Shown here: piece after piece, positions 17,501 to 56,393 of the stretch
Layout: each line of letters starts with the position of its first letter
Position numbering within the stretch: position 1 is the first letter of the stretch
Origin: Rugalucina vietnamica
Taxonomy: Eukaryota > Mollusca > Bivalvia > Lucinida > Lucinidae
DNA: 64,000 nucleotides
NCBI GenBank assembly: GCA_964017185.1
Contig: OZ024877.1
Location: forward strand, 61,654,711 to 61,718,710
Reading direction: 5' to 3'
Notes under the pieces: model-generated
Database searches by the model: none
What the model saw: the letters and a program-made list of their open reading frames with translations, nothing else
Told to the model about the DNA's origin: nothing
Position numbers and translations under genes: made by a program

Positions 17501-20500
17501 TTTTTTTATTTTCTCCATCTATATTAATTATGTTGATTTCTTCATAATATCATTTCTTGCGTATTTGTCCCTCTATTTTTGTAGATTTCTTCATAATATC
17601 ATTTCTTGCATGATTTTCTCCCTCTATTTTTGTGGATTTCTTCATAGTATCATACCTTGCGTTATTTTGTCCATCTACATGTATATTTGCTGATTTCTTC
17701 ATAATATCATATATTTTATAATTTTGTTGATTTCGTCATACTATTACGTATTTCTTACATTTTTGTCCCTCTATTTTTGTAGATTTCTTTATAATATCAT
17801 TTCTTGCGTTATTGTGCCCATCTACTTTTGTTGACTTCTTTATAGTATCATATCTTGCATTATTTTATCCATCTGCCTTTGTTGATTCCTTCATAATATC
17901 ATTTCTTGCGTTATTTTGCCCCTCTATTTATGTAGATTTCTTCATAAAATCATTTCTTGTTTATTTTATCCATCTGTTTTGTTGATTCCTTCATAATATC
18001 ATTTCTTGTGTTGTTTTGTCCGCCTTTTTGTTGGTTCCTTCATAGTATCATTTTTTGCATAATTTTGTCTATCCATTTTTGTTGATTTCTTTATAATATC
18101 ATATCTTGCGTAATTCTTTCCTTGAATCTTTTGTAGATTTCTTTACCATACCGAACCGTTTCGCCATGGATGAGACCACGGGGAACATCTATTTCACCTC
18201 CTCCTACTATGACTATATTGGTGTCATCACCCCACACCAGACTTTCATAGAGATTCCAATAGATGAGCTATTCCTCTCAGATGTGACTGCTATTGCTCTG
18301 CATCCTGGAAAAGGGTAATTGTTACATTATGAGACACGCGTTATATCTTATGCTGTACATCGGTTTAAAAAGGTTTTAAAGGTTTGTCAGAATGTGTGCA
18401 ACGCCTTGATAATATTTATATTAGATTTGGGACCAAGTTATACAGACAAATTGTTGGAATTCCGATGGGTACAAATTGCGCACCTCTCGTAGCTGATTTA
18501 TTTTTATACTGCTACGAAAGAGATTTCATGGATTCTCTTAACCATGATAATCAAGCTGATGTTATCGAGGCATTTAATTCCACATCTAGGTACCTCGATG
18601 ACCTTTTGAACATTGACAACCCTTATTTTGAAGGTATGGTCAATCAAATTTATCCACCTGAACTTCAGTTGAACAAAGCCAATATCTCAGATACCGAAGT
18701 CCCCTTTTTAGATCTACATCTTTCTGTTGCAAATGGATTTGTTTCTTCTAAAATTTATGATAAGCGCGATGACTTTGATTTTGATATTGTAAATTTTCCT
18801 TTTTTGGATGGTGACGTCCCTCGTCGTGCTTCTTATGGTGTTTACATTTCGCAACTTATTAGGTTTGCTAGAGTCTGCAATCATGTTACAGACTTCAACG
18901 CTCGAAATAAATGTTTAACGGCAAAACTTCTCCAACAGGGCTATCGGTATCATAAACTTCGAAAAACCTTTTCTAAATTTTATCGTAGACACTATGAATT
19001 GATTTCCAAATATAATGTTGGGTTAAAGACGCTTTTAAGTGAGGGCCTTTCGGAACCTGAATTTTATGGTGACTTGGTTTACAAATTTAAGAAAGTTAAA
19101 GGAAAAAATGATTTTTCTTTTCAGTTCAGAAAAATCATAACACGTTACAGACGTATAGGTTATAACTTGAATGTTATGCGACAGTCTGAATGCTTAGTTT
19201 TTAACCCAATCATGGTTGATAACTATGCTGCCTTCTTTAATTGCACGCCGGTGGGTCGGGCGTCAGACTCACTCTATGATGGCCCCGACTTAAAGCTACT
19301 CATTTTAGTTGGTTGGGGCCGGAGCTTCTTGTCTGTTGCTTGGCCCACCGGGGTCCAACTGGTGTTTTTCTTTTGCTCCGGAGTTAGTAGGTTATTCGGC
19401 GCCCAGGGATCTCCATCGTCGGGCAGCTTACTCAATCTGTGAGTCCTTGTTTTTGATTCATCAGGATGTTTATCATGATTTATTTGTTTGTTCTTGATGA
19501 TTCATTGACTAGTAAGAGAATCACCACAAGGACCGAAGAACTTACTAAATGTTATGAACCACTGCAGAAGCTGAGGGTGAGGTAAGGATCCTCTAAAACC
19601 GGTTTAAGCCCGCCAGTAACTTTGTGTTACTGATCGTTCCAAGGCGATACTTCTGTGGTGGTTCTTTTTGTTTTATGTCTTGGTGTTTAAATTTTTTTGT
19701 GCTGTTGGCGCCTTATGTATGTTTTCATATTTTTAATTAAGTTAAGGTAACTGAGTGGCCACGTATTGGGAAAATAGCTGCTCATTCGGCTTACGATATG
19801 TTTCATGGTATAAGTGCCTGGTTGTTAGTTTGGTTTTTTCCCACCTCGGTTTTTGGAGTGGGAATCTCTTTCTGATTGCGCCTTTTCCTGATCTTTGCCT
19901 ACTTGTACCTTTTTAGTAGGCAATGATCAGGAAATGGAACAATCAGAAAGAAATTTCAACTCCAAGAACCTGCCGGCTGGGAACAGTTTAAGTGACAATC
20001 AGATATTTATACTAGTAAGAGAACATATTGTAAGCCCAGTGAGCAGCTATTTCCCAATAAGCGACCACTCACGATTATATTGAAGCACTCTTACAAAGTC
20101 AGAAATATAGGCTACATTGTGAATTTTCCGATGATAAACCTTCATTCGTGACTCTTTATTGACAGTCACATCTTTGGTTTAATAGTCACGTTATCCACTA
20201 ACTCAGAATCCTATAAGAAAATTTCCAGTCCGATATCTTCTAGCTTTATTTCCTTTGTTTATTTTTTATTTTTTTCCCAACAGTTACACATGTTTTCATT
20301 GTGTTCATCAGGAAAACATGTCCGTGTAATGTATACCCACTTATACCACACATTTATATAGCAAAACTGGGGTTTGCAGGGGTATACCTATTTTTTCTTA
20401 GTTTTGCTCCAAAACATAGATTGTGGGTACTCGTTAGGACCGCCTCGCCTATCAAAAAATTCCCCTGAAAAATTTCATTTTTTACAGCTTTAAAATTCTC

Positions 20501-23500
20501 TGTTTATTGCATGGGCGTGTTTTCGTAATGTTTCAGCTACATGTTTTACGCAGTCCACGATTACGCTTATTCCTATATCGGGCGAGCCAACATGGACGGT
20601 ACGAATTCACAACGTTTGATAGAGAATACAGATAGCACGCCCATCAGATGGCCCGATGGACTGGCAATTGACTATAACCGTGAGTTGAAAAACCATTAGT
20701 TCATAAGTATTATCGGCTCATAATTATGTAAGAATTAAAAATTAATGTCATGTTCTTTGCTTGAAGGCAACAAAGAGAAATATATTGTACAGCAATGTTT
20801 CCGGAAACTAGTGATGTATACTCATATGTAACAAATTGCGGGAGACATTGATGACGCGACTGTAAACGCGTACATTTGCCATGCATTTTTAGCTCACCTG
20901 AGCCGAAGGCTCACAAGGTGAGCTTATAGTATAGTAGTCGAACCGGCGTCCGTCCGTCCGTCCGTGCGTCTGTGCGTCCGTCTGTCCACATTTTCAAACT
21001 TCAATATCTCTAAGACAACAAGGCCAATCGTGACCAAATTTTATCTAAAGCATCATTGAGGAGGGGGAAAGGTTGTATTAGGTTTTGGGCCAGGTGGGAT
21101 CAGAACTCTGGTTTCCATGGCAACGGATAGCTCCCATAGACTTACAATGGGAAAAACATATAAAAATCTTCTTCTCCGAAACCACAAGGCCCAGAGCTTT
21201 CATATTTAATGTGTAGCAATGTATAATGGTCCTCTTTATAAATCCTGCCTACCGTGCCACTGGGGTCCATACGGGCCCTGCCCCGGGGGCGTGATGGGGC
21301 AAAACATAAAAAAATCTTCTTCTCCAAAACCACAAGGCCCAGAGCTTTCATATTTTGTATGTAGCAATGTTTAGTGGTCCTCTATATAAATCCTGCCAAT
21401 CATGCCCCTGGGGTCAAATATGGCCCCGCCCCGGGGGTCATTAGCTCCCATAGACTTGCAATGGGAAAAACATAAAAAATCTTCTTCTCCAAAACCACAA
21501 GGCCCAGAGCTTTCATATTTTGTCAGTAGCAGTGTATAGTGGTCCTCTTTATAAATCCTGCCAACCGTACCCCTGGGGTCCATACGGGCCCCGCCCCAGG
21601 GGGTCATGGGTAAAACATAAAAAGTCTTCTTCTCCGAAACCACAAGGCCCAGAGCTTTCATATTTTGTTTTTTTTTCAATATATAGTGATCCTCTTTATA
21701 AATCCTGCCGACTGTGCCTCTGTGGTCCACAGGGGCCCCGCCCCGGGGGCGTCATGGGCAAAACATAAAAAAGTCTTCTTCTCCAAAACCACAAGGCCCA
21801 AAGCTTTCATATTTTGTATGTAGCAATGTTTAGTGGTCCTCTATATAAATCCTGCCAATCATGCCCTGGGGGTCAAAAATTGCCCCACCCCGTGGGTCAT
21901 TAGCTCCCATAGACTTACAAATTTTTTGTGCTGTTGGCGCCTTATGTATGTTTTCATATTTTTAGTTAAGTTAAGGTAACTGAGTGACCACCTATTGGGA
22001 AAATAGCTGCTCATTCGGCTTACGATATGTTTCATGGTATAAGTACCTGATTGTTAGTTTGGTTTTTTCCCACCTCGGTTTTTGGAGTGGGAATCTTTTT
22101 CTGATTGCGCCTTTTCCTGATCTTTGCCTACTTGTACCTTTTTACAATGGGTAAAAACATAAAAAATCTTCTTCTCCAAAACCACAAGGCCCAGAGCTTT
22201 CATATTTTGTCAGTAGCAATGTATAGTGGTCCTCTTTATAAATCCTGCCAACCGTGCCCCTGGGGTCCATACGGGCCCCGCCCCGGGGGGGTCATGGATA
22301 AAACATTAAAAAAATCTTCTTCTCCGAAACCACAAGGCCCAGAGCTTTCATATTTTATTTGTAGCAATATATAGTGTTCCTCTTTATAAATCCTGCCAAC
22401 CGTGCCCCTGTGATCCACACGGGCCCCGCCCCGGGGGCGTCATGGGAAAAACATAAAAAAATCTTCTTCTCCGAAACCGCAAGGCCAAGAGCTTTCATAT
22501 TTTGTATGTAGCAATGTATAGTGTTCCTCTTTATAAATCCTGCCAACGATGCCCCTGGAGTCCATACAGGCCACGCCCCAGGCATGTCATTATCTACCAT
22601 AGACTTATAATGGAAATATATGAAAAAATCTTCTCTGCAACAGCATGACACAAAGCTTGTATATTTGATATACAAAATTGTCATGTGGAGCTCTACATTA
22701 ATCCTGCCAATCTTGCCCCTGGGGTCAAATATGGCCCAACCCCGGGGGTCATTATAGGACCCTGACCTTGTTAGATGATTTTTTCAAGTGAACCAAAATG
22801 GCAGAAAAGAGGATACACAATCCAGACAAGAGCTCTTCTGCTGATGTAAGTATGGTTTCAAGGTCACATGACCAAGATGGCCATCATACCCAATGGCATA
22901 TATGGTAAAAACCCCAACTACTTTGTCCAGTGACTGTACTTGTTGGCTCTCAGGTGAGCGATCGTTGCCCCTGGGCTACTTGTTTCTATATTTCTTGAGA
23001 AACTCAACATGGCGTTGATTTGTGAATAAAAGCTTAAATATTACACATTTTCAAATTAAATGCACTAGTTCGATGTTTATTTTAGCAGCAGTATATGTGT
23101 ACATGGTCTTCTAAGTCATTCTTTGTGTCTTTGGTGTACTGGTTTTAAAATTTAAAGAGGTTTTATGAAATGGGCTCTTAGAAACAAAACAGCCGAAAAA
23201 AGGCCGAAAATGGCGATTTTCAAGTTGTTGGTTCTCTCTTATATGCTCACTACCCTATACATTTCTTTCTTTTATTCGAACAATATTACCAAGTTCTATG
23301 TTGTGTGAAAATACAAAAAAAAGTTTGAATCAACAAATATGGGTTTGGTACATTTCAAAATATTGATTTTTTTCCGACTTTTCAAGTATGGGGGTAGCGT
23401 TAGAAAAGGAATCGTAAAATTTTGTCATCCACTAAAGGTTGCAAATTTTTCTATGCTTTTGGTCCAAAATTGTCTGCGCTACATAAATATTATGACTTTT

Positions 23501-26500
23501 GAAAGCATTCTCAATGTATTTTTGTTCAAGACAGGTATGTTTCAAAGAATCATAAATTAAATTAATTTTACCAAATTTAAAACATGGTGCTCAGAGGTCT
23601 CATTCAGAGGCCTGTAGCTTGAAAAAATGCACACTACCCTATATTCATTTTGTTTTCAAATGTCTTGTGTTGTATTTTGGAATAAAAAAAGAGTGGTTAG
23701 AAAAAAAGTTTGAATACTTTTTCATTGGCAGCGAACATCCTTAAACAAAACACATGTGATTTTTGCAGGTAGTTACCTGTATGTGGCTGACAGGTACTAT
23801 GACACTATAACGCGGTGTGATTTCAATGGGAGAGGATGTGTCAAGGTGTTTGAAGACCCAATGGCAGATATCAATGACATAGCAACGGACGGAAGTTTTC
23901 TGTACTACTCTACCAAAGGAAAAGGGTAAGAAACGATACCCCCTGGCTGGTTGATCTGTATAAAATTTCTCTAGAGGTCAATTCCGTAATTGAGTGAGAA
24001 AATCACACATATGCTGAATATCTTTCGCAACAATAATCCATAACAGATAAAAAGGTATTAAAAGAAAAAAGGTACAAGAAGGCAATGATCAGGAAATGGC
24101 GCAATCAGAATGAAACCCCACTCCAAAGGAATGATAATAGAATTATATCGCTTATTAAACAAAGGTCTAAAAGGGAAAGCAAAAATATCCACTGATGACC
24201 TTATCCCAAAGAATAGGCGTTGTAGAAATCAACACTACATGGCATTTTACATACCTTCAGCAAGTACAAATGTCTATTTACATAGTGGTACTAATTGTTT
24301 TATGTTTTGGAGCCGAATTTGTGCTGTTTGTACGCTATGTACGTTTTCATATTTTAGTCAAGTTCTGGTAACTGAGTGGTCGCCTATTGGGAAATAGCTG
24401 CTCACTGGGCTTACAATATATGTTTTAGTATAAGTACCTAACTGTCAATTTAAAGTCTTTTGTTTATAAGAAGCACTCTTTTTTCCTAACGTTTCGGCCT
24501 TTTACAGCCTTCTTCAGAGGAAACTTTTAACTTTTTGTAAACTTTACATACTTTCAGTCAAACTCAGGTAGCCATATTGAAAATGATGTCACTTGATTAT
24601 AACGTCGCCCCAGATGATGTCACTTGATTATAACGTTCTCTAATGGGTGCGACGTCGCCTGGGGCGACGTTATAATCAAGTGAACATTTAGACTAGTGAT
24701 CCAATCTCAAATTTTGAGACCAGGGAGGCCGGGTTTGTAATGGATGCAGACAATGATATTTTGATTGCCCAACATCTGGGGAACAGCGCTAGGCTTGTCT
24801 GCAGATTCACAATCCGTTTTGTAGGTCAGTACAGAGGTCAAAGGTCATGGAGTGCAAAAAAAAATAAAAAAAATCGTATTAGTGTACCTACTGATGGTAT
24901 GTTCAAAATAAAACCAGATTTTTGGTAGTTTTAATGTGTACCTGTGCAAATGATATTTTAAATGATTATATACTTGCCATATGGCAACAAATTAGTCAAA
25001 ATTGTAATCAAAGTACTAAAAGTACTGCATTCGTAAAAGGAATATGTTTGGGTAAAAGCAACATATGATATTACTTTCAAATACTAATTCCTTCATGTGA
25101 TACATCTTACATAGTTATGTTCAACACTCAAATATATATGTATATGTGGCTGTCCCCTTGGTCTACTGCACGAACATAACTTTGAACTGTGAGCAGTTGC
25201 ATGACAAAACCAACATTTTTGCTAGGAGTCAAGCAATGAAACAAATCAATGTTGGCGTAAGTTCAATATGAATTGATGATTTATTCATGGAGAAAACTTG
25301 GCTACTTATGAAATGAATAATGAGTTTAATCCAAACTTGTAAATGCCTAGGCTGTTCTGAATCTTTGCCAGGGGCAAATCCGAAACCTTTGGCTTTGCCG
25401 AAATGTAAACATTCGCTTAAGCACAGTATCACTGGTTGCTATATGGGTTTGAGCACACATTATCGACACACGAACATGCAGGTGTGCAGATCATCTCCTC
25501 CTGTCGGCATTTACATCTTCGTGTTGCACAAGACTTGCATCCACAGCTTATGATAGCCACACATGTTTGTGGAACAGGATCTATAGTGGTAAGAAGAGGC
25601 TTCAAGTGTGTACCATCTACGTCTCTCTGCCAGCCATTTCCAATTGGTGAATCTAGCTGCTGTCTAGATTTCAAAGCTAACTGCCAGACTTTTGCCTGAT
25701 AGTGGGATCTCCTAATATGTTGGTCCAGTGTGTCTTTGGCTGGAGGTAGCTTTTCTGGCTCTACCTTACCCTGACGAAACAGTCTGCAGCGCAACTCGTT
25801 AACAGACGTTATATCTGAACTTTCAGAGTACATTTTACAAATGAACTGTTCTGCACTTGACACAGTTTCTTCTGTAAGATTTCCAACACCTTAATTCTTG
25901 AGTAGCTCCGGATACATCATAAAAACCTTCCATGATTTCTTTTTACCATAACCTCTGAAATGACTGACAGTATCACACCCTGTTATAGCATGATACCCCA
26001 ATATGCTTTCCCGCATTGTATTCTGGATTCTTATTTGGTGGACTTTAATGAACTTCGGAGCTTTAAAAGTGCCCGTTTTCATCCAAACCTCTTGGCACAA
26101 TTGAGTTGCAAAGAATGTCAATAGTACAAGTACGTCTGTGTCCTTGCAACAAATGACAAGCCTTTCATATCCTTCATCAGATGCCTCTTTCGCGTGCAAA
26201 ATAATCCTCGTGTCGGCCTCTTCTTGGTCGGACTTGAGGGATTCAATGTCACGCCCCGTACTTGATACAGCTCTGTCGATTTCAGTAAATCCACCTGCTG
26301 TCACTATTTCTCTATCCCCATGAATACTGGAGGTCGTAAGTTCATCTGATAAGAATGCAGCAAGATTGGCCTTATTCTCCGAACTTGATATGAAATTGTC
26401 CCAATTCTTTGGAAATGGGACATCTCTGTTTTCTATAAGACGACGTATCGGTCTCTGGCTTCGAGATCTCTTATCCCTAGTTGCTCCCTTTATAGACTGT

Positions 26501-29500
26501 TCTTGATATCTATCAAAGACGACGTCAATTCTTGATCCAGTGTTTCTACTAACAGCTTCATTGAAGTCATCCGCAAATTCACCAAAGGTTTTGGCCTTGG
26601 ACTTTTTCCCCACTGTGTGCACCAGTGCTTGTCCGTCAATTATTGTCACTGTTTTCAATGATGAATCAGGCAGCAATTGTGAGGTAGCCCCAGACTCCAA
26701 AATGGTAGCCAAGTCTGATTTTGCATCACAGGGAAGGAGTTTACCAGTAGTATCCGCAATAGACAACGGAGTAGTTGAAAGTTCATGGCATAATATCTCC
26801 TCTAGGTTTATATCACGACCGGCTTCCTGGCTTACTAAAAGTCTCTGAAATAGGTCTCGCCCAGCCTTTATTGTCTTGGTTTTGTCTCCAGCTGATGCCT
26901 GTAAAGTCACTTCATACATGGAAGAGAGAGTTCGAGACCTGTTCTGCTTAATGGAATCATGAAACTTTGCTGAATTCTGTATCAGTCTGTTCTCTACAAA
27001 ATCATTAATTTGTTCCTTACCCCTTTCAGGTGCACTCAATAATGCGGCACCTACTTCCTCTGGAGCTACATCCATTGTTGTCAGATTGATAACTTCGGGA
27101 ATTACCTGTTTAAATGCATTAAAGCGATTCAACTGCTCATTGATACTCTTTACATCTTGTTCATCACGAGATAGACGTGCTGGACTTGACTCTTTTGTTT
27201 CCCATGCAGAGTACTCCTTATCAAGGTCACAGATACCAAACATTTCATATGTGTTTACAGAGACCTGGCTTCTATGATTGTATGTCAAACACCATCTATC
27301 ACGAGTACTATCTTCTCTTGTAATACCAACAAGCCCTCCAACACTCTTACATATCTTGTTAACATGCTCCAGAGCTTGGTCTGTTGACAACTGATTAAAG
27401 TTCTGCTTACTTTTCTTGACCACAAAGTCACCTGCCATGAATTGTTCATATACATCAGGATGGCTGGTTTCTAACTGCCGCATATCAGCTAGGTAGACAG
27501 ATCCCCATCGGGTATAGTTAACATGATCATAGATGGCAAACCATGGCAGCATGGAAGCAAATGCAGATAAATGCAATTGCCAATCTCCCTCCCTTTCAGC
27601 TCTTATAAAATGTAATAAGATGGAAACCATATCCAGATACTGCTGCCAATACTTCACAGTTGGAGACCTTGATGCTTGGAATTCTTGCATAAGTGGAAGA
27701 ACATTTGATGTTTTCATAGCAGCTTTAACTTCATTGAATGTCTCAACAATTTTGTCAATATCATCCCTCTCCTCAACCAAGGCTACAAGTCTTTTAATTC
27801 TTTCTTCAACTGATGAATCAATTTGAAGCTGCTGCTCTGCTAACCATTCCAAAAATTGTGGCCACAGGATACGTAGTAGAGCTTCATATGTTAACTTATG
27901 AGCTCGCACTGTACGGTTGTATGATTTAGCTAGCAAATTATTTGTCGCTGTATTTTCACCAAAGACCCCACTTTCGATCCACACCTCTGAAAGGCCCGAG
28001 TCTGACATGTGTTTTCCTATAGCCCGCATAAACGTTAATGCCGTATGAAAGCTCCCAAGCCTTAGTAGAAGTGATCCAGTTACTTCATGATTACTCCACT
28101 GGAGCATCTTTGCTTTGCAATATAACTGCTCATCTAATGTAAGCACCGTTGTCTGACCTTGATTGAGTATATCCGAGAGTTTCATGCATCTCAATATGAC
28201 TGTCCATAAAGTGTCATTGTCATGGGCTGGAGCATTCAGAATTGGTAGATAGCCAATTGATGTAACTTCAGAGCTCTTCTCTGACACTATCTGGTTAAAT
28301 CCTGTCCAGAAAGGAATCTTCTGGTCATTAGTATCATTCATACGGGTAACCGCCCACGCTAGATCATTGATTGCTGCCTCATTGTGAAGTGCTTCCTCTG
28401 CATCATACCAGTTTATGTTTACTTGGTTTGCGAAGGCTGGTCTCGGTTTCACTGGCACTTGTGGTGGAGCTGTGAGGGTATGGATAGAATCTGGTACATC
28501 TAATCTCATTTCTTTGCCCATATTGAAATCAAATTTCATTTCTCCTTTGGTTCCTCTTTGAAAAGCAACCATTTGGGTTGCATGAAACGTGCCCTTACCA
28601 TCGAGAGTTTCCTCAATAATGTCAATATTATCTGCCGAGAACTGAACAAATTTGCCTGGCTCTATGTTTAGAGGAACTGACACGTTACCATTATCTTCAA
28701 ATGACTGTAGCTCAGACTTAGCTATCGATGTGTCTATTCTACGCACTTGGTTATAGCTTATACAGTGTCCCGCAGCATGAAACAGGTTCACTAAGTCTTT
28801 AGATCTTGTGGCTTGGTGTAATGTCAATCCAAGTCCAACATGTTTGGGTGTTAACTTTCGGCAATTTGATACTATGTATACCAAATCCTGGGCTACACTT
28901 AGAACTTTCTTGTCTAAATCTTTGGTAATTTCATCTTCGTTATCCTCGTTGATGCTTTCACCTGTAACTAGTAGCCTCAGAAACAGATACAGAGAATTAG
29001 GCACAACCTTCTCTACTTCTTCATCATTCACTGCCAAACAGTTTTCCATACCGACAGTAGATCTTATATCATTTCGAATCGCCAGTGCAGTATTTCTAAG
29101 CATTGTTAGACTTTCAGTTTCTGTAACCTTTTGTGTGTTTTCGACCAAATCTTGGATAGCTAATGTTTCAGTTAGCTCCTCATGTTTCTGAATTAATTGA
29201 GGTATTGCTGCTCTTGCTGATTGCTTTGGAAAGAGTAGCTGTGGTGCATGTCTGTCAAGCTGAGGAACAAAGTCAATTATCGTATCTAGCTCTTTCTCCA
29301 GTCGCTGTTTAAAACGTGTCTTGCTGTTCCTGTAAAAAAAAATAAATAATGTCCTTATAGTCTAACCTTTTTCTGTTTACCTCAGGAAACTGTTTGTTTA
29401 CCTCAGGAAACAGTGTAGCCAACACCATGGTTAATAGAACTCTCTATACATATTTGTACTAGTTATTATGTATGAAGCATGCAATTTAAATAGATGTATA

Positions 29501-32500
29501 TGTCTAAATGCAAGCATTTTAGCCAACACCAGCGTTAGATTATTTATCTATAAAGCTTTGTGAATATATATGATTTGGTTATTGTGGGTGAAGCATGCGA
29601 GCAATCTGTGACTAAATGACCATATACAAGCAGATACAAAATGAAGCAGTATATCTATCTACATGACTTACAGTAGCTTTGCCAGTCACACCTCCATCTC
29701 AAGAAACGTTTACTGTCATGATACAAACCTGTAACTAGGAGTAGATTCACCTAATTCGGACAGAAGCTGCTCATATCTATGCCAAACGTCTAGCAACGTG
29801 TAGACATGACCCTGAAATATACCCTCTGAAATTTCGTCTGTCAGACGGGAGAAACAAATGTCTTTGGGGGATGTTTTGTTCTCCTTCTTTGCTTTCTCTA
29901 CTCGTCTTTCAAACCGCATTCTACACTGATTATGGTAGATAGCGTCTGCTGCTATGAGATCTGATATACCTGCCGTTCTAATACGCATTACATAATCATG
30001 TTTGGACGCTTCCATTATTTTCTGAGAGACTGGTATTGTCATGATTAATACAGTCTCTTTGCTCGATTCCTTCTGGCAGAAAATACACAGAGACTTGTCC
30101 CATGGTGTGAGCGACCCTCTGGTCACTGGCCTACTCACTTGTGTTGGTGCAGCTGTGGCTGCCCTATCTGACTCTGAGGAAGTACATTCATCTTTTTCAG
30201 TTATGACTGTGTTTCCTTTTGGTACTCTGTAATTTACAATCTTATCATAACACCTTTTGTGATACAGAATTTCAGAATCCTCAGGTATATCTTCAAAATC
30301 AATTTCAGATACTCTATCTAAAAGGTCTCTGTCCTTCTGGTCATCAAGCTTGATTCTTTCAGCAGCTTTAGCCTTTAGAGTATCTCTACCGTGTCTCACA
30401 AGTGATCGCAAGTTTGACCGTTTGTCTTTCTTGTCACATAATACACATTTGATAATACAGCTGGTACTACGTTTTGGCTTCTTTGATGAAGGCTCCCCTA
30501 AATCAAGGACAGGATTCATTGTGAACAGCTAATCTCTGAAATAAAATGAAAAGTAAAGTTAGGTTATGTACTCATGTTTGTATTTTCACTTGTAAGGCTG
30601 TATGTGTGCGTATGTACTAACATTCATACTACATATACCCACTCAAATACATATTTATATCATGCGTATATATATATGAACTGAAAATGATCATAGCTCA
30701 TATTACAAATGATAAAAACAAATTTATTTTGTCTTGGATACTTTAACTACCTGTAAACATAATGAATAAATGTACTTGGAGACAATTTTGTAACACACGA
30801 AATGCAAACAAACTTTAATACCTAAAATATTAGTACTTTTAGTACTTTGATTTCAACAAAAGCTCCCAAATGCTCCTTTCTGCATTTGCAAACATTTGTT
30901 TTATAGACTTGAACCATTATTAATTGATTTCAGTCAATTATTCATCAAACAGAACCGCATAACAGTCAGTTTACAGTGATATATTGCTGTAATAGCGAAA
31001 ATGCACTTGATGACCTTTGACCTCCGTAATTTGCATAAAAGACATTTCCTTGACTGCAGACAAGGCAGATATTGTTTAGCAAAGGTTGATGAACAGTTTA
31101 CACCATATAACTTTGCATTACTATTCCGGCCTCCCTAAAATGATTTCTAGAGGTCTCCTGAAAAATAATTACTTGTCTAATTTTCAATATGGCTACCTGA
31201 GTTTGACTGAAAGTATGTAAAGTTTACAAAAAGTTAAAAGTTTCCTCTGAAGAAGGCTGTAAAAGGCCGAAACGTTAGGAAAAAAGAGTGCTTCTAATAA
31301 ACAAAAGACTTTATATTGTTCTTCCTTAGAAGAAACCTTAGAATTACAGTGTCAATTTAAGTTTTTTCCCACCTCGGTTTTTGGGGTTGGAATTTCTTTC
31401 TGATTGCGCCATTTTCTGATCATTGCCTACTTGTACCTCTTTCCACCAGACTATTAGAGATTCAATTGACCTCCCTCATTCTCTGATCTCCACTGCTGAA
31501 ATGCCTTGTAAGACTTCGGGACTAAAAGAATTCGGGACTAATTCCCGCCGGTAAAGCCCCGCCTCCTGGTGTGGTATTACCAATTTGACGTTCATCAGTA
31601 AACTATTCAGATTATTCTCACGCTATTATCTTGATATATGTTCTTTATCAGATTGTTTAAGATCGACCTGTCCAAAAGCCCACTCAGTGCCACCAAGATG
31701 GGAACAGAAAGCGAGTTGGGAAGTCTGGGGAGTTTGGCCTTGTTCAGACAATCAGTCACACAGCCAGGTAGAGATTTCATACACAATATTTGAGCCGCCA
31801 CATGGGAAAACCAACAGTCTGCCTAGGCGAAAACAAAGGCACAGATCAGCTTCGCAGTAACCGCGAAGCTGATCAGCGCCTTTGTTTTCGCGACTCGGAT
31901 AGTACAGTTCCTCTTCTACTTAAATCCGAAATTTCAAGCTTCCAGCTATTTTCTGTGACTGTACAGGCCGGTTTGTGTCGGACCTGGTCGGAAACCACAT
32001 TGTTGGTTTCCCACGAGGCGGCTCATTTGTTTGATAGTGTTCTTGTAATCTGTCAAAGTCTTAAATAGCAGGCTTTAAGGAAACACTTAAAGAGTGAATC
32101 AGTCGGGAACAGCCGCCTATCAATGATGTTTAAAATTATGGACTGCATCTTTTACAAAAGCCTTGAAAATAATATACGTCAATCAGGTACTGGCTACCAC
32201 ATATGAATATAAAATATTCTAATTGATTTAAACATGTTGTTTCATGTGAACATTATATCTTTGTTTGCTTTGCTTTTTCGTTGTTGTCATCTGTAATAGT
32301 CATAACTATTAAGACACGACAGTTTTAGTCTTTGATATCTTTGCTGTATTTTATTTATATTTAGTATTTTAGACACTAAAGAGGTAAAACAACTAACAAT
32401 AAAGTTAAAAAAATTCTCAGCAGTGGCTGATGGTTGTAAGCATTTCAGACATACAACTTTACACTTTTATAAAGGGATCATTCGTGGTTTTCAGTGTTCA

Positions 32501-35500: not shown

Positions 35501-36259
35501 CAAAATTAATTGTATATTAGGCATTATTGCATTTTCATTCATTTGTGGAAATAATATATGGTAATATAGTTTACAAAACGAATCTAATCCCTTTCACCAT
35601 CCAATTATAATTTTTTACTACATTATTGAAACTTTGTAAGTTCAAATAAATATAGGCCTTATTTCCGTCGTGATTTATGCTACGTCGTTTGAAAAAGCTG
35701 TATATTAGTGTCATGAAAAACAAACAAACTTGTTTTATGTTTCCTATTCTGCTTTTGATAACAGTTTTGTTGCCCATCTATATTTTGTCTTTCTTATTTG
35801 TATTATTTCACGTTTCCACATGTGCTACTTTTTTGGCTTGATGTCTTGATCTCCATAACAATCATATGAGCCTGTGCATGAGAAAACCAACAAGGTGGGT
35901 TCCGACCAGGTCCGACACAAACCAGTCTGTACAGTCACAGAAGATGGTTAGAGGCTGGAAATTTTGGATTTAGAAAGTAGAGGAATTGTACTATCCTTGT
36001 AGCGAAAATAAAGGCGCTGATCAGCTTCGCAGTTACTGCGAAGCTGATCTGCACCTTTGTTTTCGCCTATGCAGATTGTTTGTTTTCCCATGCAGTGGCT
36101 CATATTATTCATCCTAAATATATACATGTATTTTGAAGAAAAACACATCATTACGAGTACAATGAAAATGAATTTAAGGTGTTAAGTAGAGAATATCTTA
36201 ACACCCTCAAACGAATACATTCTAAACAGAACCTTTTTTCAGTTGTGATGACAAATCTG

Positions 36260-39200: not shown

Positions 39201-42200
39201 CTGATGAATCAAAAACCAGGACTCACAGACTGAGTAAGCTGCCCGACGATGGAGATCCCTGGGCGCCGAATAACCTACTAACTCCGGAGCAAAAGAAAAA
39301 CACCAGTTGGACCCCGGTGGGCCAAGCAACAGACAAGAAGCTCCGGCCCCAACCAACTAAAATGAATAGCTTTAAGTCGGGGCCATCATAGAGTCTGACG
39401 CCCGACCCACCGGCGTGCAATTAAAGAAGGCAGCATAGTTATCAACCATGATTGGGTTAAAAACTAAGCATGCAGACTGTCGCATAACATTCAAGTTATA
39501 ACCTATACGTCTGTAACGTGATATGATTTTATGAGTTGTATTACATCATTACAGAACATACTTAAATGCCTGTTGCAGATTTGTGTGGACGTGAAGGTCT
39601 TCATTCATTGTCTTTGTAAAAAGCGTTAAATATGTGAACAATAGAATCAATAGAAATACAGGTCCTACCATTTCATTTTGCTCATTTTAAAATTTTGAAT
39701 TTGTGTACATTTTATACATTTTGAAATTCAACCGTCATGGCCAAGAGTGGAAACGACAAATGCTTAATATTTATGGATAAAGAAAATAGTACCATTATTA
39801 TTTATTGTGTTTCTTTCAGCATCATGTCCAAGTGGTCAGTTCCGTTGTGATAACGGTCAATGTATTGCTGAAGAAAAAGTGTGTAATAAAGTCAGCGATT
39901 GTTCTGACGGGAGTGATGAAGGACCAACGTGTGGTAGGTGCCACCCCCCCCCCCCCCCGGCCCCACCCATTTCTTGCACAATTTGAGTTCTGTTCATTCC
40001 GCACATTTGGCTAACTTTTTCACAGACAATCCACACTTTTGAGTTTGAATTGTTTTATTCACTATATTAGGACCATCATGTATGTCCAGTCATTATGGGT
40101 CTTGCAGCTTTACACAACTAAATTATACCTTAAAATTCCAATGTCAGATCTAAGCATTTTAACTTCTAGAATAGAGTTCAATAAAGGTTTGCGCAAAATG
40201 CTAGGGACGTTAAATGAAACCCTTTATTTCCATTTAGATTACAAAAATTTCTCCCTGTTACTTTAATTACATTCACAATACTGTAAGAGGAAGTCACTAA
40301 CTACTCACGGTTTCTCAACTAACAAACCAGTAGAACTTAATATCCACCCTTTTTCAGTTAACTGTCCATCCAGTATCTCCAATGGTAGATTATTGTCATG
40401 CGATTATAAGGTTGGAAGCAGGTGTAATTTCACGTGCAACGCAAACTATCATAAGGTAGATGATCAAGTTGTGTGCGCACGTGGTGGTGAATGGCACATC
40501 AAAACACCATGTGAAGGTAATGTTTTAGGAATAGTCGATTTAATGCATCATGTGTGTTCCGTTTAAATCATTGTCAGAATATTCAAAATTTGTCAATGAG
40601 ATATGCATTGATAAATTATTCAAAGAAATCGATTTATCTGGCTTAGATTTATGGCAGTATCCAGCTTTTGTACAGTCAGACTAGGTGTATTCTTTAAACC
40701 CATTAATATAAACGTACGTTCTGTACACACCACAGAAAATGTGACCAAACACTTTGTGCTTATGAATGATAACAAGAAATGCTTTTTATAACGAATACAG
40801 TCTGACATGCTTGTATACATATTTCGATGTATGTCCCTGGTAATGGCAATCCACATGCAGACAATTTGTCTCGACTGTCAAATGATGATATGGTTTGTTC
40901 GGTTTTCTCACTGTAAACTATTTTATCCTCCGCGATAAAAGTCCTCGCATCAGTAATCGTGCATTGTATTTGATTTTGATACAAGCATGGTGTCCTTTTT
41001 TGTTCATTTATTACACTACATGTATTATGATTTTGTCAATGTTCCTTTACCCTTATATCATATGTTTCTGGTAGTGGCAACCATACAGCAGACAATATGT
41101 CGGGACTGCCAAGGTGTTATCTTTTATCTTATCTCAATACTCTCAGGGTATAATATGCGCATACTTCCCCTAAATCAATTAGTGTATTGCGACTGGAAAA
41201 ATGTGATTGTGCTTCTTTTCGAAAATATAATTAAGTTTATTCCTCCCTAGCCGATGTATGTCCTGGGCAATGGGCATGTAAGAGCGGACAGTGTATCGCA
41301 AAGGACAAGGAATGTGATGGAACACCAGATTGTGCTGACAAGAGTGATGAAGATAGTCACTGTGGTACGTGTCGTGGTCTGTTAAGTATATGGTGTCTTT
41401 CCCAGTGTGTGTGTGTTGCTTAACATTGCACCTGCAAAATTGCTCAGAACAAATGCAGAAACCATGGAATGTGTTAGTCAATGCTGAAAAAAAATGTAAG
41501 CGTGTTTCTTGAGCCAGATGGTTTCTAATACGTCTTATTTAAACAGTTTAATCCAAGGGGTACTAATGTTTTGCCACTTTTGAGTGCGGCACGGATGATG
41601 CTTTATCCTATAAAATTGTACAATATGACTTACCTTCCTTTTCAATAATATGTTCCAAAAGATCTAACTTCTATATGTAGAATTTGACTTTTTGCAACAC
41701 AGCACCAGAGAAAAAAGGAATCATCACAGTTTTTGAAACTCTTTTAAAAGTTCCTAATTAAAACCTGTGGTTGAACTAAGTGAAAATTAAAACAATAACG
41801 TATGACAAGTATTAAGAATGTATCATTACCATATTTGCAGCTGTTAAATGTCCTCCGACGATAATCATGGGCAAACTCTTAAACTGTGACAGGACGGTTG
41901 GGCAAAGGTGTAACTACACGTGCAGTAGTGGATATAGCAAACAAAGCAACGAGCTTATCTGCGTTCAAACTGGTTCATGGAATATCGATAAACCTTGCCT
42001 TTGTAAGGATTTATTTATGTTACAAAAGACTTGCGACATATTTTGATTTGAATATACATATTTGCAACTTTCTTTAGAACGAATGCTGAACTGTAAACTG
42101 TTAACCGACGCTAAACATACATTGTTGATTATTCAGCTCCAATTGATTTGATATAAAATATTTATTAATATAAAATAACTCTTTAAAGATCACGCAATTT

Positions 42201-51399: not shown

Positions 51400-51722
51400 G
51401 GCCTCGGTAGCTCAGTAGGTAGAGTGTCCGCTCCGAGATCGGGAGGTACCGGGTTCGATCCCGGGCCGCGACATACCAAAGTCGTTACCAATGGTACTAG
51501 TTGCTCCCCGCTTGGCACTCGGATTTTCGGGGTAGGGCTAGGACTGGTCGCTCCGGTGTCAGTATAATGTGACTGGAGGTGGTATCAGGTAAAAGTGTCT
51601 GGGATCTAATACCACAGTGAGGCAGCAGTATAAAAGTGAGCATTGAGCTCCCTGTCACAACCAGACACCGTAGTGGTAATGACAGATAATGTTGAAAGCG
51701 ACGTTAAACCCGAACTGCAAAC
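51400..51722 (+). mobile_element. Full-length tRNA-derived SINE with GACGTTAAAC tail
   Basis: GCCTCGGTAGCTCAGTAGGT head with box A and box B (GGTTCGATCCC), followed by a ~240 nt body and the tail AAAGCGACGTTAAACCCGAA common in mollusc SINEs. The tRNA-like acceptor ends do not pair, so it is not a tRNA gene. Confidence 0.85.
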
Positions 51723-52273: not shown

Positions 52274-52936
52274 TTACCCTCTGGCATTGGTGTTAAAATA
52301 ATTATATAGGGGCGCCCATTTAGCGAAAAATTTAGTCATAGTATTGTTCATCAGAGCAATATATTTTTCACTTTGAAATTTTTTCTTCAGTAAGTTGATA
52401 AAATTATCGATACGTAAGGTTTTTTGAGTAAACTTGGTGGTATATATATAATGTTTTGCAATTATGGATAGATAATTTCTTATTGTATTTCTTCTATCTT
52501 GATTTGAGAATATAATTTGCTTCCCATCTAAATTTAATGTTAGTGTTGAGTGAGTATTTAACCAGAGTTGTAATTCGTTCCAAAATTGTTTAACTATTTC
52601 ACATTCTACGAAAAGGTGATATATCGTTTCGGTTTGTTGATTGCAATATTCACAAATATTATTGTCGGTTTTGTTAATTCTATATAGAAAGGATTTTGTG
52701 ACTAGTATTTTATTTATTACTTTGAATTGAAAGTCTTTAAGTTTTATTTCTTTAACGGACGCTATTATTTTATTATAGTGTTTGTACTCATCAGTATCAA
52801 TAAATCCAAATTCTTGCATCCATTTATCATTTAATTCTATTTTCTTTGACTGTAGCATTAAATCATAAAATCGTCTACTTTTAAAACAAACTGGAGATAT
52901 ATATTGCATGTAACATTGAATCTGTTTGTAATGCAA
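52274..52936 (-). CDS. LINE ORF2 part 3: C-terminal zinc-finger region
   Basis: CEYCNQQTETIYHLFVEC is a C-x2-C...H-x4-C finger of the kind found at the C-terminus of L1/Tx1-like ORF2 proteins, followed by FWNELQLWL. The first ~23 codons overlap the previous frame, marking a frameshift. Confidence 0.82.
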   Translation of the reverse strand: MHYKQIQCYMQYISPVCFKSRRFYDLMLQSKKIELNDKWMQEFGFIDTDEYKHYNKIIASVKEIKLKDFQFKVINKILVTKSFLYRINKTDNNICEYCNQQTETIYHLFVECEIVKQFWNELQLWLNTHSTLTLNLDGKQIIFSNQDRRNTIRNYLSIIAKHYIYTTKFTQKTLRIDNFINLLKKKFQSEKYIALMNNTMTKFFAKWAPLYNYFNTNARG

Positions 52937-54345
52937 GTTGTTGTATTATCGTTTAGCGTATTTTTCCATCTATTTGGGATTTTATTCTTGAGAGCTTCAT
53001 ATTCTAAAAATGTTCCTCTTATTCCATAACGTGTTTTTAAAGCTTCAAAATCAAACATATTTCCTTGTTCATTAAGAAGATCCGATACTTGCCGAATACC
53101 TTTTTTATACCATTCGTTAATAAAGAAACTATGTCCGTTTATTAATTTTTTATTATACCATAAAGGTGCATTCAAAATATCTTGAACTTTTTCAATGTTA
53201 ATACAGTCACAAAATGACCCCCAGTCTGTTAAAATGTCTCTCCAAAATGGGTTTTGTATATCTGATAACACTACTCTTACATACCCAGGTCCGAAATTAA
53301 ACAGTTTTTCAAAATTAATGTTTGCCATAGAGCACCATGAGATATTCTCAGATTGTTTAACTACTCTTCTTAACCATGAGATATGCAGCGCTTTTATAAA
53401 AGTTTTTGTATTTATCATTCTAAGTCCTCCTGCCGTAACATCCTTAATAATTATATTTCTTTTAATTCTATCAGGACCTGAATTCCACAAAAATTTATAA
53501 AATATTTTATCTATTTTTTTCATAAGTTCCCCTGGTGGATTTGGAAATGCTAAAAATAAATGGACAAATTTAGCTAACGCCAATGATTTAATAATAGTAA
53601 TTCTTCCAAACAGTGTTAACTTCCTTTTGGACCATACTTTACAGAGTGCTTCAATATTAGAATAAATTTGCCCTGTATTTAAATCCCATATATCAAACAC
53701 CTCTACGCTAAAGGTAACCCCTAATATTTTAAACTCTCCTTGCGTCCAGTCGAGTTTATATTCTCTACAAAGTTGCCTATTTGAGTGACTTAGTGATCCT
53801 ATCCAAATTGCTCTTGTTTTCTCGATGTTTATTTTTAGCCCTGACATGGAATAATATAGATTTAAAATTTTTAGTGTCTCTTTTAGAGACTGTTCTGTAC
53901 CGTCAAGAAAAAGCTGAGTATCATCAGCATATTGACTTAGTCGAAATTCTTTTCCATTGATACGAATACCTTTTAAAACTTTATTATCTCTTATCATTTT
54001 TCCTAAGATTTCGGCACACAAAATAAATACATACGGTGAAATTGGATCGCCTTGTCTACATCCTCTTTTAAGGTTAAAAAAGTCTGACATAAATCCATTT
54101 TGTATTATACATGATTCCGATCCTTTTTGAAAAATATTTATCCATGAAATAATTGAAGGCCCAAAATTAAAATATTGTAAAACTCGTTTAATAAATTTCC
54201 ACGATACTGTGTCAAATGCCTTTTCAAAATCAATTGAAAGAATCATTCCCGGTATATCTTGGTTTTTAGTTTCAAATAAAATATCATACATAAGCCTAAC
54301 ATTTTCTCCTATAAATCTGCCACTAATAAAACCTTTCTGATCGCC
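52858..54345 (-). CDS. LINE ORF2 part 2: RT core
   Basis: Continues from GFISGRFIGENVRLMYDILF into LSIDFEKAFDTVSW, LKRGCRQGDPISPYVFILCA and LSQYADDTQLFLDG (YADD catalytic motif), then SGLKINIEKTRAIWIG. These are in order and intact for a non-LTR reverse transcriptase. The frame shifts again near its 3' end. Confidence 0.88.
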   Translation of the reverse strand, partial: GDQKGFISGRFIGENVRLMYDILFETKNQDIPGMILSIDFEKAFDTVSWKFIKRVLQYFNFGPSIISWINIFQKGSESCIIQNGFMSDFFNLKRGCRQGDPISPYVFILCAEILGKMIRDNKVLKGIRINGKEFRLSQYADDTQLFLDGTEQSLKETLKILNLYYSMSGLKINIEKTRAIWIGSLSHSNRQLCREYKLDWTQGEFKILGVTFSVEVFDIWDLNTGQIYSNIEALCKVWSKRKLTLFGRITIIKSLALAKFVHLFLAFPNPPGELMKKIDKIFYKFLWNSGPDRIKRNIIIKDVTAGGLRMINTKTFIKALHISWLRRVVKQSENISWCSMANINFEKLFNFGPGYVRVVLSDIQNPFWRDILTDWGSFCDCINIEKVQDILNAPLWYNKKLINGHSFFINEWYKKGIRQVSDLLNEQGNMFDFEALKTRYGIRGTFLEYEALKNKIPNRWKNTLNDNTTTCITNRFNVTCNIYLQFVLKVDDFMI

Positions 54346-56069
54346 ATTTATAAGTTGTATCTAATGTAAGTTTTAATCTATTTGCTATTACAGATGAGGC
54401 TAATTTATAAATTACATTTAATAAAGATATTGGTCTCCAATTTTTCAAATAATGTCTTGATTTATTTGGTTTTGGTAAACACGTAATAAGTCCTTGTTTT
54501 TGCGTGACGGATAGAGTTCCTGTATGATAACCATAGTTCAATGACCTTAATATAAAATATTTCAAATCCACCCAAAAGACTTTATAAAATTCTACGGTAA
54601 ATCCGTCGAGCCCTGGGCTTTTTTCATTTTTCATATTCTTCAATGCATTTGATAATTCATCAATTTTAATGTCTCCTTCTAATTTTTCAGATTCCTCAAT
54701 TGTAAGTTTATTTTCGTTCTCACCAATGATTTCTGTAATAGGTACATCATCTGCGTCTATTAAATTTTCATTGTAAAGGTTTTCATAAAACTTACGTTGA
54801 CACTTTAATACTTCTTTTGTTTCGGTAATTTCTGTTCCATCATTTTCTATTAGTTTAGTCATAGTTTTATTAATAAAATTTCTGTTTTCCAAATTAAAAA
54901 AATATTTTGAAGGTTTTTCTCCCAAATCTTGATATCTACTCCTCGACCTCAACATAACACCTTCAATTTTTTCTTTTCTAATATCAATTAAGCTTTGTTT
55001 CTTTTGTGAAAGTTCTAAAATTTTATTTTCCTCAGCATTCGAAAAGTCATTATTAAGCTCATCTTCTAGTTCCTTTATTTCTTGTAGTATTTTGTTTTCG
55101 TCTTCAAGTTTGACCTTTTTCTTGATTGAGCAGTATTTAATTGTATTACCCCTAATAGTCATTAATAAAGTTTCCAGAAACAGTTGATCATTAATATTAA
55201 ACGCTACCTCATTTACATCATTAATGTTTTCATTATTCAGAGCGTATGTATTTATTACTTCACGTATAGTATTTTTAACCTCTTCAATGTATTTTTTATC
55301 TTTTAATAGTGTGTTATTAAACTTCCAATAACCTCTTCCCCTTTCTGCCTCTTGTAACTTTAATTTTAATATTATACCAGAATGATCAGTTCTGTAGCCT
55401 GGGACTATGTCTGAATGCATAACATATGAGTTAATAGTTTCACTAACTAAAAAATAATCTAACCTTGCTTGTTTTTTGGTTGGGTTCAGTCTCCGCCATG
55501 TATATTTTTGTGTGTTTTCATTCATTACACGCCATACATCAATAAAATGTTCTTCTTCAATTAAAGATAAAACCACGTTTCTGGCCCTTGGATTATTGAT
55601 ATGTAAATAATTATAACAGTCCTTTTCAAAATCTAGAACCAGATTCCAGTCCCCACATATTATGACATTTTCATTTTCAAATTCTGCAATATTTCTCTTC
55701 AATGTTTCATAGAAATTAGGGTTATCTTCATTCGGTCCATAAATATTAGCCAGTGTAATTTCTTTTCCTTGAATGTCAATGTCTAATAAAATGTAATTAC
55801 CATTTTTGTCAGTTTTAACTTTTTTTACTTTTTGTTCAAAGTTGTTGTTAAGCAAGATCATTGTTCCCCTACTCATGGTTGTATATGAACTGAAAAATAT
55901 ATCAAATCCCCATTCAGCTTTTATGAAATTTTCTAGATTTTCATTTATGTGTACATCTTGAAGACAGATAATATTATATTGTTTCGATCGAACATACTGG
56001 AATAGGTCACGTCGTTTTGAGGCAACTGAAAGCCCACCCCTACAATTTTGAGAAAAAATTGTTAGAGAG
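54323..56069 (-). CDS. LINE ORF2 part 1: AP endonuclease and start of RT
   Basis: The frame is open without an ATG up to ~56090, giving the endonuclease start SQNCRGGLSVASKRRDLFQY and IICLQDVHINE before Met 55876. Further motifs: LANIYGPNED, IICGDWN, RLDYFLVSE and YRTDHSGI, all from the AP-endonuclease fold. Then a Lys/Glu-rich coiled region and the RT opening NEKSPGLDGFTVEFYKVFW and NWRPISLLNVIYKLASSVIA. The frame is lost near 54350. Confidence 0.87.
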
Positions 56070-56393
56070 TCAGCCTCTGTATTGAATTATATTCATTTGT
56101 AATGAGACATTATTTTGCACTCGGAGGGACAAGCATACGTAAGGACAATACTCCCAATTATAATTTATGGATAGCTTCTGACAGACTGGATATAAAAGAT
56201 AGAAACAGAGAAAGGAAAGATAACCTACCTTAAAATAAATCATTTTCCGGTAAAAATGTTGTGACTTGGTACAAACAGTTTTATCTCATAGTGACTTAAT
56301 ACTACATGTTAGATTTATGTGTTGTAGGAACATACAATGTACTGAAAGTACTTGATAAAAACATGTAGCTGCCAACATATTAATGAACATATA

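What the first reader, a model, noticed from the sequence alone, without database searches (positions are those of the whole stretch)
24443..31360. DNA transposon whose enzyme looks like a FEN1/XPG flap nuclease
The single two-exon gene has no visible DDE, tyrosine or HUH transposase motif. It has two Cys/His clusters, a long middle region of unknown type, then [25 protein letters not shown] and ITGCD in the order of the FEN1/XPG metal-binding site, and a CXC-like Cys-rich end. The family of XPG-nuclease transposons (Academ) is the nearest known idea, but the flanking repeat here is 8-11 nt rather than 3-4. Only one stop interrupts ~1,560 codons, so the copy is young.
Basis: partly seen in the sequence, partly recalled or inferred. 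Interest (0 to 1): 0.75.

Follow-up and report, generated by a model that had tools for sequence, protein, structure and literature searches.

The report
Jumping gene with flap-nuclease-like tail
A nearly intact jumping gene in an animal-like genome carries, in one long protein, a region of a known but uncharacterised family that is probably its transposase, followed by a part that resembles DNA flap-cutting enzymes; an empty copy of its landing site shows that it duplicated about nine letters of DNA when it jumped in.

Summary
The element is real. A paralogous empty site inside the window (21925-22146) aligns across the joined flanks with only three single-base gaps. This fixes the insertion at 24452-31349 with a 9-nt target duplication, TGTCAATTT (readable as up to 11). 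The inverted repeats are 139 nt, 98.6% identical, but 37 extra nt lie outside the right one. One spliced gene (399-nt GT-AG intron) encodes 1,563 residues with one in-frame TAA. The 'unknown' middle matches Pfam DUF6589 above cut-off in 3 of 6 cuts; by recall and inference it is a DDE-type transposase. The C-terminal acidic motifs stand in XPG/FEN/Pol I 5'-nuclease order. A Pol I-type profile aligns EEAD and KDTD in catalytic register (6 of 2,237 shuffles score as high), but Pfam and an archaeal FEN1 profile do not find it. Structure prediction failed (pLDDT 36-37). Best reading: an Academ-like transposon with an accessory XPG-like nuclease. It has AcademX's nuclease but AcademH's 9-10 bp duplication, so it is filed under neither.

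The parts
24443..24451 (.). left target-site duplication TGTCAATTT (reading up to 24453 is possible)
   Evidence: paralogous empty site 21925-22146 aligned across the joined flanks
24452..31349 (-). whole element (gene on the minus strand)
   Evidence: bounded by the duplications; empty site
24452..24584 (+). left terminal inverted repeat (similarity starts at 24446, within the duplication)
   Evidence: 24446-24584: 137 of 139 nt identical to the right repeat
31180..31312 (-). right terminal inverted repeat (similarity runs to 31318)
31313..31349 (.). 37-nt extension outside the right inverted repeat, absent on the left; origin unknown
   Evidence: sequence; no match longer than 13 nt elsewhere in the window
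31350..31358 (.). right target-site duplication TGTCAATTT
24722..25026 (+). left subterminal region with short conserved inverted blocks (AGGGAGGCCGG, CTTGTCTGCAG, GAGGTCAAAGGTCAT, ATCAAAGTACTAAAAGTACT); partner 30832-31136
29729..30519 (-). exon 1: two CxxC...YHxxC clusters (residues 25/86 and 145/195), probable zinc-binding DNA-recognition part
   Evidence: no Pfam match above cut-off
29330..29728 (-). intron, 399 nt, GT...AG
25429..29329 (-). exon 2, with one in-frame TAA at 25891-25893
27232..28077 (-). DUF6589 (PF20231) match, residues 682-963 of the spliced protein; probable part of a DDE-type transposase core
   Evidence: 28.9-30 bits, cut-off 27, E 2.9e-7 to 6.1e-7, in 3 of 6 cuts covering it (missed and in two cuts)
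25711..26673 (-). XPG/FEN/Pol I 5'-nuclease-like region with IIDG, VFD, EEAD, KDTD, TGCD...GYGKK
   Evidence: hhalign to Pol I 5'-nuclease profiles in register; motif order; not found by Pfam, PDB phmmer or archaeal FEN1 profile
25447..25548 (-). C-terminal CXC-like (TCR-type) cysteine cluster
   Evidence: Pfam TCR E 0.19-0.9, below its cut-off; cysteine pattern in sequence
24482..24523 (-). hammerhead-like hairpin in the left repeat (gene-sense strand)
   Evidence: mirror of the right copy; pattern 2 hits in window, 0 expected; this strand was not folded, its complement forms an equivalent hairpin; no Rfam match
31241..31282 (+). hammerhead-like hairpin in the right repeat
   Evidence: fold of 31236-31290: -11.5 kcal/mol, z -1.73, 14 of 200 shuffles fold as well, so weak; no Rfam match
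24589..24683 (.). 95-nt near-perfect palindrome in the left end; probably a separate small insertion
   Evidence: fold -56.4 kcal/mol, z -11.6; no counterpart in the right end

Best explanation
An Academ-like DNA transposon that encodes one large protein. N-terminal CxxC/YHxxC clusters and a C-terminal CXC cluster bind the ends and subterminal motifs. The middle, which includes the DUF6589 match, is the DDE-type transposase; it cuts the ends and joins them to target DNA with a 9-nt stagger, giving the TGTCAATTT duplication. The C-terminal XPG/FEN/Pol I-like nuclease is an accessory enzyme that trims flaps or removes branched intermediates made during excision or gap repair. Shown: the insertion, its 9-nt duplication, the inverted repeats, the spliced reading frame, the DUF6589 match, the order of the nuclease motifs. 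Inferred: that the DUF6589 region is the DDE core, that the nuclease is active, and the division of labour.
For: Empty site and 9-nt duplication. Inverted repeats 137 of 139 nt identical. Good splice signals and 1,563 codons with one stop. DUF6589 above Pfam's cut-off, spanning LGSFH and ALEH. Academ is listed as a DDD/E superfamily (PMC9587614 passage), with a nuclease-carrying lineage AcademX and a helicase-carrying lineage AcademH (PMC10045372 passage). The nuclease region aligns in catalytic register with Pol I 5'-nucleases, 25-27% identity over 93-95 columns; 0 of 300 full shuffles and 6 of 2,237 block shuffles reach the six-sequence score; two other parts of the protein gave P 0.34 and 0.75 against 0.08 and 0.11.
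Against: No held sequence ties DUF6589 to a DDE fold or to Academ; that step is recall and inference. DUF6589 was missed in 3 of 6 cuts, and two of the three residues I propose for the triad lie outside the match. The nuclease is missed by Pfam, by PDB phmmer and by an archaeal FEN1 profile (515 of 1,200 shuffles score as high). Both structure models are unusable (pLDDT 37.1 and 36.3) and the fold search of the first gave no match at all with E <= 0.001. The 9-nt duplication does not fit the 3 or 4 bp reported for AcademX. The two ends are not symmetric (37 extra nt on the right).
Confidence: 0.6

Rival explanations
1. The FEN/XPG-like nuclease is itself the transposing enzyme and there is no DDE core.
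For: The five acidic motifs are complete and in order in an element that looks young; no Pfam family named as a transposase matched.
Against: A FEN-type nuclease cuts flaps but is not known (established knowledge) to join ends to target DNA; a 9-nt duplication implies staggered strand transfer. DUF6589 covers the middle. Academ, the XPG-carrying superfamily that I recall, is counted as DDD/E.
Confidence: 0.15
2. A member of the Academ superfamily in the strict sense, AcademX, with an atypical duplication.
For: XPG-like nuclease downstream of a putative transposase in one protein; AcademX encodes a nuclease (PMC10045372 passage; that it is XPG type and in one protein is recalled).
Against: The duplication is 9 nt with an empty site to prove it, against 3 or 4 bp reported for AcademX. 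No Academ sequence could be compared.
Confidence: 0.4
3. A different long-inverted-repeat superfamily (MULE-like, 9-11 bp duplications) that picked up a nuclease.
For: Long inverted repeats and a 9-nt duplication are usual for MULEs (recalled).
Against: No MULE or Mutator-type Pfam match in any cut.
Confidence: 0.08
4. Composite with Penelope-like ends: the outer 139-nt repeats with a hammerhead-like hairpin and the 37-nt one-sided tail derive from a Penelope-like retroelement.
For: Penelope-like elements usually carry minimal hammerheads without helix III (PMC6155905 passage). The repeat has CUGAAGA...GAAAC between paired stems. The tail is one-sided.
Against: Inverted similarity continues inside the 139 nt at matching distances, as in one transposon's own ends. 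The core has one extra A against the recalled consensus, its fold is hardly better than shuffles, and Rfam finds no hammerhead. No reverse transcriptase match in the element's protein.
Confidence: 0.1

Closest known systems
AcademX lineage of the Academ superfamily
   Same: DNA transposon that encodes a nuclease besides its transposase (PMC10045372 passage; XPG type and single protein recalled)
   Different: Duplication 9 nt here, 3 or 4 bp there; no sequence comparison possible
AcademH lineage of the Academ superfamily
   Same: 9 or 10 bp duplication against 9 here
   Different: AcademH encodes a helicase; none found here in the Pfam scans
Pol I 5'-nuclease / FEN1 / XPG nucleases
   Same: Order and register of acidic motifs, GxGxK after the last one
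   Different: Overall similarity too weak for Pfam or PDB sequence search; archaeal FEN1 profile fails
Pfam DUF6589 family
   Same: Middle region, 28.9-30 bits against cut-off 27
   Different: Only model positions 137-403 of 410 match; the name occurs in 0 papers of the library
Kolobok lineages with added nucleases (KolobokE, KolobokP, KolobokD)
   Same: DDD/E transposon that also encodes a nuclease (PMC9587614 passages)
   Different: Other nuclease folds and another transposase superfamily

Membership tests
AcademX | 3 or 4 bp target-site duplication | tested here: not met
   9 nt (up to 11) shown with an empty site; literature value
AcademX | nuclease (recalled: XPG type) downstream of the transposase | tested here: inconclusive
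   motifs in order and register, but no Pfam, PDB or FEN1-profile match
Academ superfamily | transposase sequence groups with Academ DDD/E transposases | not testable with these tools
   no Academ sequence at hand; the AcademH paper is not held
AcademH | 9 or 10 bp duplication | tested here: met
   9 nt (literature value)
AcademH | encodes a helicase | tested here: not met
   no helicase family in Pfam scans of the protein and its cuts
DDE transposase | RNase H fold with three clustered acidic residues | tested here: inconclusive
   single-sequence model pLDDT 36.3; DUF6589 match only
XPG/FEN nuclease | PIN-like fold with clustered acidic residues | tested here: inconclusive
   model pLDDT 37.1; no Foldseek match with E <= 0.001
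XPG/FEN nuclease | conserved acidic motifs in order | tested here: met
   regex matched this protein and 6 of 10 known members (one of the misses a fragment), 0 of 350,000 shuffles; regex written after seeing the protein
DUF6589 (PF20231) | score above Pfam gathering cut-off | tested here: met
   28.9, 30 and 29.5 bits against 27; missed in 3 of 6 cuts
CXC (Tesmin/TSO1) domain | score above Pfam cut-off | tested here: not met
   10.3-12.5 bits against 23.5; cysteine spacing fits by eye
Hammerhead ribozyme | Rfam match or canonical core | tested here: not met
   no hammerhead hit at gathering in the window or at E <= 1 in 24300-31500; one extra A in the core against the recalled consensus

The most novel reading that the evidence does not exclude
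A third Academ-like lineage that couples a DUF6589/DDE transposase to an XPG-type flap nuclease yet makes a 9-nt duplication. This would break the published association of nuclease with 3-4 bp and helicase with 9-10 bp, and suggest that the transposase core, not the accessory enzyme, sets the stagger. Its inverted repeats would also carry a hammerhead-like RNA motif at both ends.
Probability: 0.3. Interest if true: 0.55.

Novelty: new variant of a known kind. Interest (0 to 1): 0.42.

Why it matters
Academ is (recalled) among the least-known transposon superfamilies, and how its accessory nuclease or helicase serves transposition is open. PMC10045372 (passage) suggests that duplication length follows the accessory enzyme. 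A near-intact nuclease-type element with a proven 9-nt duplication would contradict that if it belongs to Academ, and gives a concrete protein to test. It also suggests a role for the uncharacterised family DUF6589.

Tried and rejected
Relatives: scans of viral contigs with exon 2 and with repeat and motif patterns gave nothing or chance hits. L001 and L002 were checked; the best alignments there had E 0.006 (end of exon 2) and 0.073 (exon 2) in a search of just these two loci, and are judged chance. One scan of genome contigs gave one hit, judged chance (best E 0.026 for that one locus). tblastn of exon 2 (up to the stop) against plasmids and phages gave no match at E <= 1. A FEN1 motif scan of viral contigs found nothing. 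No other copy of the element or its ends lies in the window at E <= 1e-3 (DNA) or of its protein at E <= 1.

Structure: two single-sequence models, both unusable. Foldseek of the first gave no match with E <= 0.001 (50 of 227 weaker rows were shown, none a FEN or PIN nuclease); the search of the second was never accepted.

Archaeal FEN1 profile (4 of the 5 chains printed): score no better than shuffles, 515 of 1,200. The mixed Pol I plus FEN1 profile gave 4 of 1,200. The six-sequence Pol I profile used A1 plus 3 of the 5 chains printed, one of them in part. The motif regex was written after seeing the protein, so it shows order only.

Hammerhead: considered, not supported by Rfam and folds hardly better than shuffles; kept as an observation.

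Pfam and NCBIfam matches below cut-off (such as DUF5891, LEF-3, Sfi1_C, DUF919, IcmW, DUF4083, M_C, Tup_N; two) are treated as chance, as are the Rfam mir-598 match (E 0.28, on the palindrome) and the PDB matches.
Full report
What was checked. The structural claims could be tested inside the window. No relative was found in the collections at hand, and the search of the window's own genome did not complete (20 attempts listed under Tried and rejected).

The insertion is proven by an empty site. The host DNA around the element is itself a short repeat with inverted ends at 24066-24127 and 31381-31442. A second copy lies at 21925-22146. Its first part matches the left flank up to the duplication, and its second part matches the right flank from the duplication on. 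When the two flanks are joined with one copy of TGTCAATTT, all 222 bases of that stretch align through the junction with three single-base gaps, one of them beside the junction. The duplication is therefore 9 nt; because AA follows on both sides it can also be read as up to 11. The element proper is 24452-31349.

Ends. The outer inverted repeats are 139 nt, 98.6% identical. Further in, the similarity falls sharply, with a few well-kept blocks (AGGGAGGCCGG, CTTGTCTGCAG, GAGGTCAAAGGTCAT, ATCAAAGTACTAAAAGTACT) at matching places, which may be binding sites (inference). The left end has a 95-nt palindrome, probably a separate insertion. The ends are not symmetric: on the left the repeat begins at the duplication, on the right 37 nt (31313-31349) lie between. 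That piece has no match longer than 13 nt elsewhere in the window. It may be filler, a loss on the left, or a true asymmetric end; this is unexplained.

The gene. Splicing at 29728/29330 (GTTTGT ... TTTTTACAG) joins the two reading frames in phase, giving 1,563 codons with one interior TAA at codon 1410. The splice sites were chosen by eye; no transcript was seen. Exon 1 carries two clusters, each CxxC followed 61 and 50 residues later by YHxxC. The C-terminus has cysteines spaced like a CXC (Tesmin/TSO1) domain, but scores below Pfam's cut-off.

The middle. Pfam DUF6589 matches residues 682-963 with 28.9, 30 and 29.5 bits (cut-off 27), E 2.9e-7 to 6.1e-7, in three cuts. It was not reported for the whole exon 2 nor for 700- and 690-residue cuts, so it was seen in 3 of 6 constructs covering the region, probably an effect of HMMER's filters (inference). 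No paper in the library mentions DUF6589. From recall, DUF6589 proteins are common in fungal and animal repeat families. By inference the stretch from SADNID (495) through TLDEQ (661), LGSFH (688) and ALEH (916) is a DDE-type core; the first two lie outside the DUF6589 match. This is not shown: the single-sequence model of the region has pLDDT 36.3.

The nuclease-like part. IIDG, VFD, EEAD, KDTD and TGCD...GYGKK follow the order of the 5'-nuclease superfamily. With a profile of three Pol I 5'-nuclease domains (E. coli polA, L005, L006), hhalign aligned EEAD with EADD, KDTD with GDKD and the TGCD...GYGKK stretch with GDSSDNIPGVPGVGEK, 25-27% identity over 93-95 columns, without being told the residues. 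P was 0.08 and 0.11, against 0.34 and 0.75 for two other parts of the same protein. With six sequences the score rose to 24.9; 0 of 300 full shuffles and 6 of 2,237 block shuffles reached it, though the local alignment then covered only EEAD to KDTD. Against this, a profile of four archaeal FEN1 proteins gave nothing (515 of 1,200 shuffles as good), while the ten-sequence mix gave 4 of 1,200. Pfam and PDB sequence searches gave nothing relevant. A motif regex matched this protein, 6 of 10 known members, and 0 of 350,000 shuffles, but it was written after the fact. The model has pLDDT 37.1 and Foldseek found nothing with E <= 0.001. I hold the resemblance to be real (about 85%), unproven by structure.

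How it most likely works. Cysteine clusters bind the ends; the region with DUF6589 cuts and joins with a 9-nt stagger; the nuclease trims flaps or branched intermediates. Only the insertion, duplication, repeats, reading frame, DUF6589 match and motif order are shown.

Comparison. PMC10045372 (passages read) states that in the Academ superfamily AcademH makes 9 or 10 bp duplications and AcademX 3 or 4, and links this to the helicase and the nuclease they encode. PMC9587614 (passages) lists Academ among DDD/E superfamilies. PMC10294476 (passages) lists Academ among DDE/D superfamilies and reports its expansion in bivalves. PMC10799480 (passages) names helicases of AcademH in fungi. The primary AcademH paper was not held, and a search for papers with Academ, XPG and transposon found none. 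This element has the nuclease of one lineage and the duplication of the other, so it lacks a tested feature of each and is filed under neither; it works like an Academ element. Its host looks animal-like (spliced gene, LINE, SECIS), which was not tested further.

A side observation. Both outer repeats hold a motif that folds as UUUCCU-CUGAAGAA-GGCU...GGCC-GAAACGUU-AGGAAA (the right copy was folded, of the left copy only the complementary strand). The fold is hardly better than shuffles (z -1.73, 14 of 200 as good). PMC6155905 (passage) says that Penelope-like elements usually carry minimal hammerheads without helix III, which this resembles. It has one more A than the recalled core, and Rfam does not recognise it.

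Noticed in passing
21902-22146 within 21142-22754: A tandem array with a unit of about 147-148 bp is interrupted by about 245 bp that holds the empty-site copy of the host repeat.
   Followed up: partly
24066-24127 and 31381-31442: Inverted ends of the host repeat into which the transposon jumped; nested insertion.
   Followed up: yes
24482-24523 (-) and 31241-31282 (+): Hammerhead-like hairpin in both outer repeats, in gene sense on the left (downstream) end; not recognised by Rfam.
   Followed up: partly
24589-24683: 95-nt near-perfect palindrome in the left end, fold z -11.6.
   Followed up: partly
52274-56086 (-): LINE-type retrotransposon: endonuclease frame 54323-56086 (Exo_endo_phos, E 7.5e-10) and reverse transcriptase frame 52858-54360 (RVT_1, E 1.7e-25); the third frame 52274-52945 was not scanned.
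   Followed up: partly
18369-19442 (+): 357-residue open frame with [17 protein letters not shown] and YLDDLL, looks like a diverged reverse transcriptase by eye; no Pfam match at E 0.01.
   Followed up: partly
39330-39397 (-): SECIS element, 39 bits, E 0.00025; a selenoprotein gene may lie nearby.
   Followed up: no
51401-51473 (+): Rfam tRNA match, 34 bits, E 0.0026; gene or tRNA-derived repeat not distinguished.
   Followed up: no
31897-32009 and 35884-35996: 113-nt inverted repeat pair, 86% complementary, 3.9 kb apart; possibly another element.
   Followed up: no
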